From IMG/VR virus record IMGVR_UViG_3300045141_000297, positions 1 to 25,023 of that record: a DNA stretch of 25,023 bases; one strand, given 5' to 3'. The DNA comes from a virus. The position numbers and the translations under genes are program-made. Each line of letters starts with the position of its first letter. The first letter of the stretch is position 1. Shown piece after piece: positions 1-11,198 of this stretch. The notes under the pieces were generated by a model, which worked only from the letters and a program-made list of their open reading frames with translations, searched no databases and had not been told where the DNA came from.

Positions 1-269
1 GTCAGCGGGGGTGTTCGTGGCTCAAAGAACGCGCGCCGCCGGGCCAGGATCCACGCCATCGACCGTGCACTGTTGCACCGCACGCACGACGCGACCAGGT
101 TGGCCGGGTCATCACCTCCACCGTCCGCCTTGGGTCGGACGTGGTCGACGGAGCGGGCCGGGTCGCCGCACCAGTGGCACACCCACCCGTCGCGGGCGAG
201 GATGCGCAGGCGCAGCTGCTGCCATCCCCAGCCGTAGCCCTGCTGGCTGGTGGTGCGACGTGGGGTCAC
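1..269 (-). CDS. HNH endonuclease, N-terminal part (cut by the left window edge)
   Basis: Small phage HNH nuclease. The GTG start at 269 overlaps the TGA of the zinc-ribbon gene upstream (GTGA). The visible 89 residues contain ILARDGWVCHWCGD, then SVDHVRPKADGG, then NLVASCVRCNSAR. These are the paired CxxC zinc sites, the catalytic DH and the N of the HNH fold. Such genes usually sit just upstream of the terminase genes in HK97-like phages, and the product acts with the terminase in DNA packaging and end formation. The reading frame is open at base 1. If the window is circular it continues at 25023 and ends at 24921, giving 123 residues, a normal size for the family. Identity is clear from the motifs; the missing C-terminus is inference. 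Confidence 0.9.
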   Translation of the reverse strand, partial: MTPRRTTSQQGYGWGWQQLRLRILARDGWVCHWCGDPARSVDHVRPKADGGGDDPANLVASCVRCNSARSMAWILARRRAFFEPRTPPL

Positions 270-406
270 GGTGTCGTGCCGTCGTCGGGGTCGGCGAGGT
301 CGTCGCCGGTGTAGTCGTGGCAGCGGGCGCAGTAGCCGTGGCGGATGTCGTCAGGGTGGTAGCTGATCGCACCGCAGCGCGGACAGATGAACGGATCGAC
401 GTTCAT
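266..406 (-). CDS. small zinc-ribbon protein, 46 aa
   Basis: Short acidic protein starting MNVDPFICPRCGA and continuing HPDDIRHGYCARCHDYTGDD, so it carries two CxxC pairs (CPRC and CARCH) typical of a single zinc ribbon. Proteins of this size and pattern are common hypothetical genes in actinophages; their role is unknown to me. Its stop overlaps the HNH gene start by GTGA, so the two are probably translated together. The start MNVDPF resembles the NEPPF leader of the small genes at 1.4-2.5 kb, which suggests a diverged member of that set. The opposite-strand cassette begins just upstream. Confidence 0.8.
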   Translation of the reverse strand: MNVDPFICPRCGAISYHPDDIRHGYCARCHDYTGDDLADPDDGTTP

Positions 407-418
407 GACAACCCGAGG

Positions 419-453
419 TTGCCAGCCACAGACTGACAAGGTAGACTTGTCAG
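419..453 (+). promoter_or_regulatory. promoter with overlapping palindromic operator for the toxin-antitoxin-like cassette
   Basis: TTGCCA (419-424) and TAGACT (442-447) are separated by exactly 17 bp and fit a sigma-70/SigA-type promoter. A perfect inverted repeat, CTGACAAG (433-440) and CTTGTCAG (446-453), covers the -10 box. The GTG start of the next gene lies at 455, about where transcription should begin, and no Shine-Dalgarno sequence can be present, so the message is probably leaderless. A palindrome over the -10 element is the usual arrangement for autorepression by an antitoxin. Only the sequence pattern supports this. Confidence 0.65.
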
Positions 454-454
454 T

Positions 455-673
455 GTGAGGTTCGCTGACAGCGCACACAAGCACGGCGTGTCCGAAGCGG
501 ACATCCGCCACGCGCTGGCCAACCAGTGGCGCGCGGACCCCAACGACGACGGCTTCGAGATGGTCATCGGGCTCGACACCCGTGGCCGCTGGCTCGAGGT
601 CGGCGTCCTCACCGACGACGGCGAGACCGTCGTGATCCACGCCATGCCTGCCCGGCCCAAGCACCTGAGGTGA
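455..673 (+). CDS. BrnT-like toxin candidate, 72 aa
   Basis: The sequence runs RFADSAHKHGVSEADIRHAL, then a strand pattern ending LEVGVLTDDGETVVIHAMPA and RPKHLR. This matches the general layout of small BrnT-like (RelE-superfamily-like) toxins abundant in Actinomycetota: an N-terminal helix with SAxKHGVS, central beta strands, and a conserved VIHAMPxRPK ending. It begins with GTG at 455 directly behind a promoter-operator. Its TGA overlaps a possible GTG of the next gene. The family call comes from remembered pattern similarity; toxicity or RNase activity is not shown. It is the first gene of a cassette oriented against its surroundings, as expected for an acquired moron. Confidence 0.65.
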   Translation: MRFADSAHKHGVSEADIRHALANQWRADPNDDGFEMVIGLDTRGRWLEVGVLTDDGETVVIHAMPARPKHLR

Positions 674-678
674 ACACG

Positions 679-975
679 ATGACCAAGATCCCTGACCACA
701 TCCGCCGCGAGGACTTCGCCGACGAGGAGGCGTACTTCGACGCTGTCGCCGCATGGGTCGAGTCCGATGAGTTCGAAGCCGGCGAGATGCGGGACGCGAC
801 GCCGCTGTGGCGGGTGCGTGCCGCCCGCGAGGCGCTCGATCGGGCCGAGGCGTTCCTCGATGCCGAGGTGCGCGCTGTTCACGATCTCGGGTTCTCCTGG
901 ACGCTGATCGGCGTGCAGCTCGGCGTGTCGCGCCAGGCCGCCCGGCAGCGGTTCGGCGTGCCGGCGCACAGCTGA
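679..975 (+). CDS. HTH protein, probable antitoxin partner, 98 aa
   Basis: Acidic N-terminus (IPDHIRREDFADEEAYFDAV) followed by a helical region and a C-terminal helix-turn-helix, GFSWTLIGVQLGVSRQAARQ. This HTH type is seen in antitoxin partners of BrnT-like toxins in actinobacteria. ATG at 679 was chosen because GAGG at 667-670 lies 8 nt upstream; a GTG at 670 overlapping the preceding TGA is the alternative and adds three residues. Likely role: DNA-binding antitoxin and autorepressor acting on the palindrome at 433-453. The pairing is inferred from context. Confidence 0.7.
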   Translation: MTKIPDHIRREDFADEEAYFDAVAAWVESDEFEAGEMRDATPLWRVRAAREALDRAEAFLDAEVRAVHDLGFSWTLIGVQLGVSRQAARQRFGVPAHS

Positions 976-987
976 GAGCGAGCTGAG

Positions 988-1395
988 ATGGAGAAGTACC
1001 GAGTCCACGCACACCGGTCGGATGGCTGGTGGGCGCTGGAGTTCACCGAGGTCGACGACAGGCTCCACTCACAGGTGCGCCGTCTCGACCAGGCCGCCGA
1101 GATGGCGGCCGACGCGATCACGATGTGGCGCGCCGAGGAAGGTCTCGGCGCGGTGACCGCCGACCAGATCGAGGTGGTGCCGGTGCTCGCCGAGCTGCTC
1201 GACAAGGATCTGCGACGGGCGCTCGAGCGTCGCCGGGACGCCGATGTTGCGGCGGCCGAGGCGATGACGGCGACGCGGTTGCTGGTCGCTGATTGTCTGG
1301 CCGAGGGGATGTCGATGCGCGACGTCGGCGTGCTGCTGCACGTGTCGCACCAGTACATCGGCAAGCTCGCCAAGGAGCTCCAGGCCGCCGGCTGA
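988..1395 (+). CDS. HicB-like N-terminal domain with C-terminal HTH, 135 aa
   Basis: The first 45 residues (YRVHAHRSDGWWALEFTEVD, then an AAEMAADAITMW helix) follow the HicB-type antitoxin fold: a short beta sheet with a WW motif, then a helix. The C-terminal 40 residues hold a helix-turn-helix, GMSMRDVGVLLHVSHQYIGK. No HicA partner is visible; the gene follows the toxin/HTH pair after 12 bp on the same strand. It could be a second regulator of the pair or the orphan antitoxin of a lost HicA. The right end of the cassette coincides with its stop codon. Fold assignment is by pattern only. Confidence 0.7.
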   Translation: MEKYRVHAHRSDGWWALEFTEVDDRLHSQVRRLDQAAEMAADAITMWRAEEGLGAVTADQIEVVPVLAELLDKDLRRALERRRDADVAAAEAMTATRLLVADCLAEGMSMRDVGVLLHVSHQYIGKLAKELQAAG

Positions 1396-1415
1396 AACGG
1401 CGGTTGATTGTTCAT
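1396..1415 (-). pseudogene. orphan NEPPF-type leader, gene body missing
   Basis: Reading leftward from ATG at 1415 gives MNNQPPF, in the same ATGA overlap with the preceding stop as the functional leaders at 1567, 2134 and 2533. After about seven codons the frame runs into the antisense of the cassette gene ending at 1395. It stays open to 879 but then encodes serine/arginine-rich sequence typical of a shadow frame. The leader is intact and the body is gone, so I read it as the remnant of a gene cut by insertion of the 0.43-1.395 kb cassette. Confidence 0.55.
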
Positions 1416-1567
1416 CGGCCGACGGTCCCGGTGCGTTCGGGCGGCCAGCACGGGCCCACCCACTCGTGACGGTCGCGGTCCCAGTGGCAGCGGTCGGGTG
1501 CGTCGGGCAGGCAGTAGCACGCGCCGATGTCCGGCCGCCAGAGACTGAACGGCGGATCGTTAGCCAT
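1412..1567 (-). CDS. NEPPF-family small protein, 51 aa, Cys/Trp-rich
   Basis: Starts MANDPPFSLWRPDIGACYCL and continues with PDRCHWDRDRHEWVGPCW. It has four cysteines and five tryptophans in 51 residues, so it is probably a small metal-binding or disulfide-bonded fold. I do not recognise a family. ATG at 1567 overlaps the stop of the gene upstream (ATGGCTAA), and its own TGA overlaps the orphan leader ATG. Coding is supported by the leader shared with its neighbours, the overlap architecture and the non-random residue use. Confidence 0.65.
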   Translation of the reverse strand: MANDPPFSLWRPDIGACYCLPDAPDRCHWDRDRHEWVGPCWPPERTGTVGR

Positions 1568-1766
1568 CGCTGGGCTCGAACGTGACGGTGGTGGAGATGG
1601 TGACGGTGTGCGGCGGGAACACCGGCTCGTCCATCATGGTGTCGAACCAGATGTCGCACCCGCCGGGGCACTGAGCGATGTGATGCCGGGTGTTCACGAA
1701 CACGGCCGGGCCACCGGGGCAGTAGCGCCGGGAATCGATCGGCGGTTCAGTGCGGTCCTCAGGCAT
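1560..1766 (-). CDS. NEPPF-family zinc-binding small protein, 68 aa (paralogue of 2131-2328)
   Basis: Leader MPEDRTEPPIDS, then YCPGGPAVFVNT, QCPGGCDIWFDT and MMDEPVFPPHTV. The order CPGGPAV, CxxxC/CxxC, F.T, DEPV..PH is the same as in the protein at 2131-2328, so the two are duplicates that have diverged. The cysteines suggest a zinc ribbon. Its start overlaps the preceding stop, so it is translationally coupled. Function unknown. Confidence 0.7.
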   Translation of the reverse strand: MPEDRTEPPIDSRRYCPGGPAVFVNTRHHIAQCPGGCDIWFDTMMDEPVFPPHTVTISTTVTFEPSDG

Positions 1767-1989
1767 CGGGGTCCGTCCGTTCCCGCGCCCGCCGCGCCAG
1801 TTCCCGCGCTGCCTGACGGCGGTGCAACCCCGACCACCACTCGGTGTCGGCGGCGACGGCGGCCAACTCGTCGTCGCTGAGGTCGGTCGTCCAGCGGGGC
1901 GCGTCGCTCATGTGAGTAAGAGTCCGCGGGCGTCGCTCGCGTAACAGTTCGCCGCGGGAATCGATCGGCGGTTCAGTGCGATCACTCAT
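1759..1989 (-). CDS. NEPPF-family small protein, 76 aa
   Basis: Leader MSDRTEPPIDSRG followed by an internal methionine (MSDAPRWTTDLSDDELAAVA) and a basic C-terminal helix, RRQAARELARRARERTD. The ATGAGTGA start overlaps the previous stop by 8 nt, which favours 1989 as start. An internal ATG at residue 27 would give a 50-residue protein without the leader, so the leader may have been added in front of an existing gene. Function unknown. Confidence 0.6.
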   Translation of the reverse strand: MSDRTEPPIDSRGELLRERRPRTLTHMSDAPRWTTDLSDDELAAVAADTEWWSGLHRRQAARELARRARERTDPDA

Positions 1990-2134
1990 GGATCGCCCCG
2001 ATCAGTTGCTGGCCGATGTGCTCGGTGTAGGCCGGCGGTTCCGTTCGCTTCCCTGAGCATCGGTCGCAGTACGGGTCGGGACCGCTGGTCGGGCGACCGC
2101 ACGCCGCGCAATCGAACGGCGGTTCGTTACTCAT
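1982..2134 (-). CDS. NEPPF-family zinc-ribbon protein, 50 aa
   Basis: Leader MSNEPPFDCAACGR, then DPYCDRCSGKRTEPP and a C-terminal helix EHIGQQLIGAIHE. CAAC and CDRC form a plausible single zinc site. The ATG at 2134 overlaps the preceding TGA, and its stop lies inside the ATGAGTGA of the next gene. EPP occurs a second time in the middle of the protein. Function unknown; it may contact nucleic acid or protein through the ribbon. Confidence 0.7.
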   Translation of the reverse strand: MSNEPPFDCAACGRPTSGPDPYCDRCSGKRTEPPAYTEHIGQQLIGAIHE

Positions 2135-2328
2135 CGGCGGTCACTCCGTCGCGCTGTCTGTCCGCCGAACGTGATCCAGTCACCGGAGGTCCGGTGTGGC
2201 GCTAGCACCGGCTCGTCAGTCAGCGTGAAGAACCGATAGCCGCAGTCGAGGCACTCGCCTTCAAATCGCCCGACCTTCACGGCGGGTCCACCTGGGCAAT
2301 CGAACGGCGGTTCGTTGCGATCACTCAT
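2131..2328 (-). CDS. NEPPF-family zinc-binding small protein, 65 aa
   Basis: MSDRNEPPFDCPGGPAV, then GECLDCGYRFFTLTDEPVLA and PHRTSGDW. CLDC with the earlier cysteine suggests a zinc site. It is paralogous to the protein at 1560-1766 (same CPGGPAV and DEPV..PH blocks). The start is ATGAGTGA overlapping the upstream stop. Function unknown. Confidence 0.7.
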   Translation of the reverse strand: MSDRNEPPFDCPGGPAVKVGRFEGECLDCGYRFFTLTDEPVLAPHRTSGDWITFGGQTARRSDRR

Positions 2329-2533
2329 CGTTCGGCCGCCAGTCGCGAAGGCGTTCCCCGCGGTTGTATCGCGGTTGCTGCTCTCCCATCGGCGTGTCGA
2401 CCACGACGACGCGGTACCGGTCGTCTCCCGGCACGTCGAAGGTTCGGATCACCCGAACGTCGTGCCCGGCCCACTCGTACCGGTCGCCAGGCTTCACATC
2501 CCACGCAGTGATGAACGGCGGTTCGTTACTCAT
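2321..2533 (-). CDS. NEPPF-family small protein, 70 aa, beta-rich
   Basis: Leader MSNEPPFITAWDVKPGDRYE followed by alternating hydrophobic strands (HDVRVIRTFDV, RYRVVVVDT). This resembles a small SH3-like or OB-like barrel, and the phrase VKPGDRYEWAGHDVRV is often seen in compact phage beta proteins. No catalytic motif. The ATGAGTAA start overlaps the preceding stop. It is the most upstream member of the leader series. Function unknown. Confidence 0.7.
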   Translation of the reverse strand: MSNEPPFITAWDVKPGDRYEWAGHDVRVIRTFDVPGDDRYRVVVVDTPMGEQQPRYNRGERLRDWRPNDE

Positions 2534-10697: not shown

Positions 10698-10846
10698 CAC
10701 GTCCCGCCTTCGAGCTCGGCGCGGGCGTCACGCCGGCGCAGCATCGCGACGGTCCCGTAAGCCACCCACGTCGCCCACATGACGACGACCGTGGCAAGGA
10801 AGAATCCGACGAGGAGGACGGCGATCCACGTCGCGACGACGGTCAT
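10697..10846 (-). CDS. small membrane protein upstream of integrase, 49 aa
   Basis: MTVVATWIAVLLVGFFLATV continues VVMWATWVAYGTVAMLRRRD, so residues 3-32 are one long or two tight membrane helices, followed by a charged tail RRRDARAELEGG. GGAAGAGG lies 2-9 nt before ATG at 10846. Its TGA overlaps the integrase ATG. It shares VAMLR and the size and layout with the protein at 7950-8108. Its place between attachment site and integrase suggests lysogenic expression (for example exclusion), but this is inference. Confidence 0.65.
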   Translation of the reverse strand: MTVVATWIAVLLVGFFLATVVVMWATWVAYGTVAMLRRRDARAELEGGT

Positions 10847-10920
10847 GACCTCTTCCTTGTCGCGGAAGTCGACGCCGCAGCGAGCGGCCCGTTCACGACA
10901 GGACCGGACGCCGGACGACT

Positions 10921-10945
10921 GGGAGCACTTCTGGTAGCACTTCTG
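10921..10945 (+). repeat. integrase arm-type sites, left arm (two 12-bp units)
   Basis: GGGAGCACTTCT and GGTAGCACTTCT stand in tandem, followed by G. The same unit recurs at 11132-11155 on the other side of the tRNA-like core. Direct 12-bp repeats on both arms of the attachment core fit binding sites for the integrase N-terminal domain. Confidence 0.65.
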
Positions 10946-10966
10946 TTCACGAAGAGGACCCTACAT

Positions 10967-10980
10967 GTCCCGTGATGTCC
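10967..10980 (-). promoter_or_regulatory. third copy of the GGACATNACGGGAC site
   Basis: On the minus strand this reads GGACATCACGGGAC, with a 16/17 match to the site at 8801-8817 when extended by GTA. It lies between the attachment core and the integrase operon and may let the immunity repressor or an excision factor act here. CTACATGT (10961-10968) next to it is inverted as ACATGTAG at 11017-11024, before the core. Confidence 0.45.
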
Positions 10981-11033
10981 TACGAAACCCCAGCTAGCAG
11001 GAAGTTTGCACGTCGTGACATGTAGTCCCGGGA

Positions 11034-11080
11034 CGCATGGCATGGAAGAGGTCAGGGGTTCGATTCCCCTCAGCTCCACC
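11034..11080 (+). other. attP: attP core: 3' half of a tRNA-Ala (GGC) gene
   Basis: From ATGGCAT (anticodon loop with GGC) through GGAAG (3' anticodon stem), AGGGG-TTCGATT-CCCCT (T arm) to CAGCTCC-A (acceptor strand and discriminator) this matches a tRNA-Ala 3' half, followed by CCC where CCA could be. The bases before the loop (GACGC) do not pair with GGAAG, and no D arm or 5' acceptor strand precedes, so this is not a tRNA gene. A core starting in the anticodon loop is a classic tyrosine-integrase target. The segment 10847-11181 (335 bp) otherwise holds only arm-type repeats and putative operators, no gene. Confidence 0.85.
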
Positions 11081-11131
11081 CCAGGTAGATGGCACAATCC
11101 GGCTCCGTCCGGAGGGGCCGAAATCCGGTCT

Positions 11132-11198
11132 GGGAGCACTTCTGGGAGCACTCCTGCACGGAGGAGCGCAACCTGGGAGCGCTACTCGGAGCGCTCGT
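11132..11198 (+). repeat. integrase arm-type sites, right arm (12-bp units)
   Basis: GGGAGCACTTCT and GGGAGCACTCCT at 11132-11155 match the left-arm units at 10921-10944. A weaker pair, GGGAGCGCTACT and CGGAGCGCTCGT, follows at 11175-11198, with another GGAGCGC at 11163-11169. The last units run into the 3' end of the lysis-region gene that stops at 11182. Confidence 0.6.

What the first reader, a model, noticed from the sequence alone, without database searches (positions are those of the whole stretch)
419..1395. Opposite-strand toxin-antitoxin-like moron with two HTH proteins
Three plus-strand genes stand inside an otherwise leftward operon: a BrnT-like toxin candidate, an HTH partner overlapping it, and a HicB-like protein with its own HTH. 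Two DNA-binding partners for one toxin is not the standard two-gene layout. Such a cassette on a temperate phage could stabilise lysogens or exclude other phages.
Basis: partly seen in the sequence, partly recalled or inferred. Interest (0 to 1): 0.6.

Follow-up and report, generated by a model that had tools for sequence, protein, structure and literature searches.

The report
Phage RelS-RelI toxin pair plus HicB
A bacterial virus carries a small poison-and-antidote gene pair of a recently described family, with a clear DNA switch in front of it and a stray second antidote-like gene behind it; the switch suggests how the whole family may control itself.

Summary
The three plus-strand genes are real. 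The first two form an ordinary two-gene toxin-antitoxin unit: P0001 (455-673) and P0002 (679-975) match the two chains of PDB 9SDC, the RelS-RelI system of Mycobacterium tuberculosis (PMC13284704). RelS cleaves 16S rRNA; its tested residues K9, H10, H64, R69 are present. P0001 folds like BrnT. The third gene (988-1395) is a HicB-type antitoxin with its own HTH, but without HicA. It is not a regular part of the unit: among 80 genome loci of the toxin family only one has such a gene nearby. So 'two DNA-binding partners for one toxin' is not the family's design.

The unexpected part is the promoter. A perfect palindrome (432-454) covers the -10 box, and a weaker copy lies 28 bases upstream. Of 92 distinct related RelS-RelI promoters, 60 carry CAAG-N3-6-CTTG, against 0 of 34 and 0 of 11 toxin loci with ribbon-helix-helix partners. 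The half-site follows one recognition-helix residue in 68 of 73 typed loci. The RelS-RelI paper reports no evidence of DNA binding and no inverted repeats in M. tuberculosis; this makes RelI autoregulation directly testable. The third gene's function stays open.

The parts
406..424 (.). second, imperfect operator-like palindrome TGACAA-CCCGAGG-TTGCCA over the -35 box; its left end touches the start codon of the leftward gene
   Evidence: 3 mismatches to TGACAAG-N5-CTTGTCA; centre 28 nt from the perfect site, as in 14 relatives with two sites 26-29 nt apart
419..447 (+). promoter: -35 TTGCCA 419-424, 17 nt, -10 TAGACT 442-447; start site expected near 454, so probably a leaderless mRNA from GTG 455 (inference)
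   Evidence: only promoter-like site in 300-1600; shuffles mean 0.1
432..454 (.). perfect palindrome ACTGACAAG-GTAGA-CTTGTCAGT, presumed RelI-type operator, over the -10 box and ending at the start codon
   Evidence: same element in relatives
455..673 (+). RelS-like (BrnT-fold) toxin P0001, 72 aa
679..975 (+). RelI-like HTH antitoxin P0002, 98 aa (possible GTG start at 670)
988..1395 (+). orphan HicB-type antitoxin with C-terminal long helix and HTH, P0003, 135 aa
1383..1405 (+). weak terminator-like hairpin at the end of P0003
   Evidence: 2 found, shuffles mean 0.3
1395..1415 (-). remnant of a leftward gene: start codon and first codons MNNQPPF, cut by the 3' end of P0003
   Evidence: shares AACCGCCGTT with three other leftward gene starts; motif at 4 minus-strand sites, none on plus
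266..406 (-). leftward zinc-ribbon-like small gene flanking the cassette

Best explanation
Window 406-1395 is a rightward cassette set into a leftward array of small phage genes. Its core is a phage-borne RelS-RelI type II toxin-antitoxin pair. P0001 is a BECR/RelE-fold RNase that, if it acts like RelS, cuts the 3' end of 16S rRNA; P0002 dimerises through its long helix and blocks the active site with its N-terminal helix. Inferred regulation: free P0002 dimers bind two palindromes over the -35 and -10 boxes through their HTH and repress the operon; excess toxin, which occupies the HTH face in the RelS-RelI crystal, would lift repression. P0003, probably co-transcribed, is a HicB antitoxin that has lost or left its HicA; it most likely survives as a DNA-binding regulator or as an antidote against HicA toxins. 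Shown: families, fold, residues, layout, operator conservation and covariation. Inferred: toxicity, neutralisation, DNA binding, co-transcription, and all of P0003's role.
For: Profiles of both genes find both chains of one solved complex, 9SDC: A1 to toxin 9.9e-27, A2 to RelI 2e-28; single sequences 2.5e-4 and 3e-12. K9, H10, H62, R67 of P0001 are invariant in the 12 rows of A1 and align with RelS K9, H10, H64, R69. AlphaFold model pLDDT 95.5, best PDB fold BrnT. Of 80 genome loci of the toxin family, 50 have the HTH gene directly downstream, 24 an RHH gene upstream, 1 an RHH gene downstream, 5 neither (2 of these cut by a contig end). CAAGN3-6CTTG stands in 60 of 92 distinct HTH-type promoters, 0 of 34 RHH-upstream and 0 of 11 RHH-downstream; earlier set 41 of 55, shuffle mean 0.39. 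Half-site follows residue X of (R/G)(Q/E)AA-X-QR: 68 of 73 typed loci, shuffle mean 40.8, maximum 53. Close kin of RelS-RelI (93-94% / 83-90%) have such palindromes twice.
Against: PMC13284704 (section 27) reports no inverted repeats upstream of M. tuberculosis relS, and that the putative HTH region is engaged with toxin in the crystal. RelI D8, which contacts the RelS active site, is not acidic in P0002 (A24); only D12 has a counterpart (E28). P0002 is a long branch (2.22) in the family tree. Of 92 HTH-type loci, 11 have a recognisable helix but no typed operator and 8 lack the helix motif; 5 of 73 break the residue-half-site rule. A motif-free palindrome score separates promoter from control less sharply (30 of 92 against 6 of 91 at score 7 or more). 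P0001 itself matches no Pfam family above cut-off. No expression or toxicity data exist.
Confidence: 0.82

Rival explanations
1. A BrnT-BrnA module in the strict sense: ribosome-independent mRNase toxin with a ribbon-helix-helix antitoxin.
For: BrnT is the best PDB fold match; phage annotators call relatives 'BrnT-like toxin'; 5 of 12 toxin-family members match Pfam BrnT_toxin at E up to 1, best 5.1e-7.
Against: The partner is an HTH protein of the RelI family, not an RHH protein. P0001 itself does not match PF04365. RHH-partnered relatives form other layouts with other promoters.
Confidence: 0.07
2. A true three-component toxin-antitoxin system in which P0003 is a needed second antitoxin or co-repressor for P0001.
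For: 12-nt gap and same strand; P0003's helix-HTH half is related to P0002 and RelI (A2 profile to the P0003 frame 3.3e-4; A3 profile to RelI 0.0056); a distant orphan HicB-HTH gene lies about 310 nt upstream of a RelS-RelI pair in Gordonia rhizosphera without HicA.
Against: 1 of 80 genome loci of the toxin family and 1 of 21 full-length HicB-HTH places in 296 genomes (contigs compared by eye) are co-located, in another gene order. RelS-RelI alone is sufficient in M. tuberculosis (PMC13284704, section 22). The HicB-HTH family's usual promoter motif, searched as GTCTA-N4-9-TAGAC, is absent from the window.
Confidence: 0.2
3. P0003 is a counter-defence or anti-addiction antidote: a phage-carried HicB that neutralises HicA toxins of the host or of resident prophages.
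For: HicB-HTH genes without HicA recur: 6 of 17 examined loci from the 296-genome sample, scattered over the family tree (10 changes). The model keeps the HicB N-terminal fold.
Against: P0003 has lost the PE-x-PG-(L/V)F stretch that most HicA-linked relatives keep and has a 6-residue insertion, which may mean it no longer binds HicA; one HicA-linked relative (L025) also lacks the stretch.
Confidence: 0.25
4. P0003 is a decaying passenger left by an earlier hicAB module, without present function.
For: No HicA in the window; loss of conserved HicB residues.
Against: Open 135-codon frame and a confident complete model (pLDDT 96.0); HTH residues kept.
Confidence: 0.25

Closest known systems
RelS-RelI (Rv2663-Rv2664, M. 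tuberculosis; PDB 9SDC; PMC13284704)
   Same: Toxin-first order, toxin and antitoxin families, active-site residues, helix-HTH antitoxin core
   Different: Phage-borne; P0002 has about 16 more N-terminal residues before the region aligned with RelI; clear double palindrome at the promoter; third gene P0003. Target not tested.
BrnT-BrnA (Brucella abortus; PDB 3u97)
   Same: Toxin fold and the catalytic pair K/H
   Different: Antitoxin family (RHH there, as recalled; HTH here); mRNA target reported for BrnT against rRNA for RelS in PMC13284704
HicA-HicB with HTH-type HicB (actinobacterial plasmids and prophages)
   Same: P0003 has the HicB-like N-terminal domain, long helix and HTH
   Different: HicA missing; downstream of a RelS-RelI pair; no GTCTA-TAGAC operator
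Attis / AlumE / prophiGD104-2 'BrnT-like toxin' loci of actinophages
   Same: Same toxin family followed by the same HTH partner
   Different: No annotated HicB-HTH third gene within the 2.5 kb flanks shown

Membership tests
RelS-RelI | toxin homologous to RelS | tested here: met
   A1 profile to 9sdc_C 9.9e-27; P0001 alone 2.5e-4
RelS-RelI | essential residues K9, H10, H64 (plus R69) | tested here: met
   K9, H10, H62, R67 of P0001 align and are invariant in 12 rows; residue roles from PMC13284704 sections 23-24 (section 23 part 1 and passages of 24 read)
RelS-RelI | antitoxin homologous to RelI, encoded directly downstream | tested here: met
   P0002 to 9sdc_A 3e-12; gap 5 nt
RelS-RelI | antitoxin N-terminal acidic residues D8 and D12 that cap the active site | tested here: inconclusive
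   aligned residues are A24 and E28 in P0002
RelS-RelI | cleavage of 16S rRNA between C1520 and U1521; neutralisation; heterooctamer | not testable with these tools
   needs bench work
BrnT-BrnA | BrnT fold | tested here: met
   3u97 first hit, probability 1.00, TM 0.69
BrnT-BrnA | ribbon-helix-helix antitoxin BrnA | tested here: not met
   partner is a RelI-type HTH protein
BrnT-BrnA | match to Pfam PF04365 by the toxin itself | tested here: not met
   only DUF4258 at 0.045
HicA-HicB | HicB-like N-terminal domain | tested here: met
   phrog_8245 3e-14; 3k6q and 6g1c with probability 0.91-0.98 but E-values 0.14-0.26
HicA-HicB | HicA toxin next to it | tested here: not met
   no hit of the HicA profile A5 in any window frame
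HicA-HicB | PE-x-PG stretch of HicB | tested here: not met
   FTEVDDRLHSQ in P0003

The most novel reading that the evidence does not exclude
The phage has merged two toxin-antitoxin control circuits. P0003 and P0002 share a dimerising-helix plus HTH module, so P0003 may form mixed dimers with P0002 or compete at the double operator, making toxin release depend on a HicB-domain sensor. More broadly, RelI-family antitoxins are sequence-specific repressors whose half-site is set by one recognition-helix residue (R: CAAG, Q: GTCAA, F/Y: GTAAA), against the present view that RelI may not bind DNA.
Probability: 0.2. Interest if true: 0.68.

Novelty: new variant of a known kind. Interest (0 to 1): 0.52.

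Why it matters
[quoted passage not shown] The palindromes found here, their restriction to HTH-partnered loci and their covariation with one residue give a direct, cheap test (gel shift with swapped half-sites) of how this actinobacterial family regulates itself. The phage copy extends the family to mobile elements whose lysogens could depend on it. The orphan HicB next to it is a natural case of one antitoxin family standing beside another family's operon.

Tried and rejected
Close-relative scans of viral contigs with P0001 or P0003 alone found nothing. NCBIfam and PADLOC gave no match for the three proteins. tblastn of P0003 in the phage collection found nothing. P0002 in phages found 2 records, of which one is only a short HTH match. 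Considered and rejected: the operator belongs to P0003 (relatives without P0003 have it; HicB-HTH loci use another motif); strict BrnTA (antitoxin family differs); three-gene block conserved elsewhere (1 of 80, other order). A first count of the residue-operator rule (67 of 73) mispaired the two copies in L065; the corrected count is 68 of 73. L219, counted as a violation, also carries a GTAAA palindrome next to the start codon. The tree has few columns, long branches and many unresolved forks, so the independence of the operator changes is only suggestive; it still contains the L065 mispairing. The PDB copy used for Foldseek ends in April 2026 and 9SDC was not among the rows shown. Paper searches for orphan HicB in phages and for HTH-type HicB listed nothing that I opened.

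Full report
What is there. The window is a 25,023-base IMG/VR virus record, probably a fragment, of a temperate siphophage with integrase, portal, major head, tape-measure and terminase genes, those named here all leftward. Three plus-strand ORFs stand at 455-673, 679-975 and 988-1395. PHROG matches are toxin (5e-14), HTH protein (1.4e-6) and HicB-like antitoxin (3e-14).

Genes 1 and 2 are a RelS-RelI pair. Profiles built from phage and plasmid relatives (A1, 12 rows; A2, 9 rows) find the two chains of one solved complex, 9SDC, at 9.9e-27 and 2e-28. The single proteins find the same chains at 2.5e-4 and 3e-12. 9SDC is RelS-RelI of M. tuberculosis (PMC13284704; I read the abstract, section 22, part 1 of sections 23 and 27, and passages found by term search in other sections). 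There RelS cuts 16S rRNA in the anti-Shine-Dalgarno region, and K9A, H10A and H64A severely reduce toxicity. P0001 has K9, H10, H62 and R67 at the places of K9, H10, H64 and R69, and all are invariant in A1. The AlphaFold model of P0001 on 51 rows has pLDDT 95.5 and its best PDB match is BrnT 3u97, which fits the paper's own RelS-BrnT comparison.

The pair is common. P0001 relatives occur in 34 phage records, all from Gordonia or Mycobacterium, and 17 plasmid records. Of 80 genome loci (best 80 of 84 kept by the scan), 50 have the HTH gene downstream, 24 an RHH gene upstream, 1 an RHH gene downstream and 5 neither; 2 of those 5 end at a contig edge (counted by eye from its table). Thus one toxin family has exchanged its antitoxin several ways.

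The promoter. The only sigma-70-like site in 300-1600 is TTGCCA-17-TAGACT at 419-447. A perfect palindrome ACTGACAAG-N5-CTTGTCAGT lies at 432-454, over the -10 box and up to the GTG start codon. A weaker copy lies at 406-424 over the -35 box, centres 28 nt apart. In 92 HTH-type loci with distinct upstream sequence, 60 carry CAAGN3-6CTTG between -60 and +6; RHH-upstream loci 0 of 34, RHH-downstream loci 0 of 11. In the first set, 41 of 55 against a shuffle mean of 0.39. Fourteen loci have two copies 26-29 nt apart. Two loci, L200 and L201, have operators almost identical to the window's.

Operator and helix vary together. Of the 92 loci, 8 lacked the helix motif and 11 had no typed operator; of the 73 left, residue X in (R/G)(Q/E)AA-X-QR is R with CAAG in 51, Q with GTCAA in 11, F or Y with GTAAA in 6, and 5 break the rule. 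Shuffling the types gives 40.8 on average and at most 53. Relatedness inflates this. In the tree built with the helix masked, R with GACAAG appears in the window, in L155 and in L200/L201 inside a part of the tree that otherwise has mostly Q, F or Y, which suggests repeated joint change, but support is weak. The three closest kin of the M. tuberculosis pair (93-94% to RelS and 83-90% to RelI over the typed fragments) have GTAAAG palindromes, two in each locus, one of them imperfect. The paper found no inverted repeats in M. tuberculosis and no evidence of DNA binding; a search for RelI, RelS, inverted repeat and antitoxin (at least three of four) found only that paper.

Gene 3. P0003 models as a HicB-like domain, a 37-residue helix and an HTH (pLDDT 96.0, pTM 0.67); the fold matches are HicB-type antitoxins with good probability but weak E-values. 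In 15 of 17 viral relatives HicA is directly upstream; of the two others, one starts at a contig edge. In the 296-genome sample there are 21 places above 50 bits; 17 of these were held as loci, 11 with HicA and 6 without. Orphans are scattered over the tree. The window has no HicA. P0003 lacks the PE-x-PG stretch. Its helix-HTH half is distantly related to P0002 and RelI. Co-location with a RelS-type toxin was found once: Gordonia rhizosphera, HicB-HTH upstream of the pair.

Setting. The leftward genes at 1567-2530 share a start motif encoding (N/D)xEPPF or a near form. The same start, MNNQPPF, is present at 1415 and is cut by the end of P0003. This reads as an insertion or replacement scar, so all three plus-strand genes may have come in together; this is inference.

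Verdict. The pair is a new phage member of RelS-RelI; the three-gene arrangement is a variant not seen elsewhere here; the operator evidence is the part worth following.

Noticed in passing
window 1412-2530, minus strand: Six consecutive overlapping small ORFs begin with a shared start-proximal motif encoding (N/D)xPPF, EPPF or EPPI (DNA GAACCGCCG or close), reminiscent of start-associated repeats of other actinophages (recalled)..
   Followed up: partly
L065 650-1139 and 1914-2419: Two RelS-RelI pairs side by side in one contig with different operators (GTCAA against CAAG types) and different recognition residues (Q against R)..
   Followed up: partly
L014-L036, L126-L134: HicA-HicB-HTH loci carry their own promoter palindromes of the form GTCTA-N-TAGAC overlapping the -10 box, often doubled.
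   Followed up: partly
L157, L161, L166, L171, L182, L202: RelS-family toxins with a downstream RHH gene show a TTCGTAGTACGA-like palindrome near the start codon, a third regulatory class.
   Followed up: no
window 1-241, minus strand: HNH-endonuclease-like protein (C-x-x-C, DHVRP, NLV-x-x-C-x-x-CN read by eye; motif recalled) at one end of the record, with the terminase large subunit at the other end.
   Followed up: no
window 10843-11151, minus strand: Translated stretch GVELRGIEPLTSSMP next to the integrase resembles peptides read from tRNA 3' ends (recalled), perhaps the attachment site; ARAGORN found no tRNA.
   Followed up: no
L016 1289-1498: A HicA-like gene is annotated 'ribonuclease PH' in a Cryobacterium plasmid record, apparently a misannotation.
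   Followed up: no
L219 upstream of relS: One locus has both half-site types: a GTCAAG palindrome further up and a GTAAAG palindrome next to the start codon.
   Followed up: no
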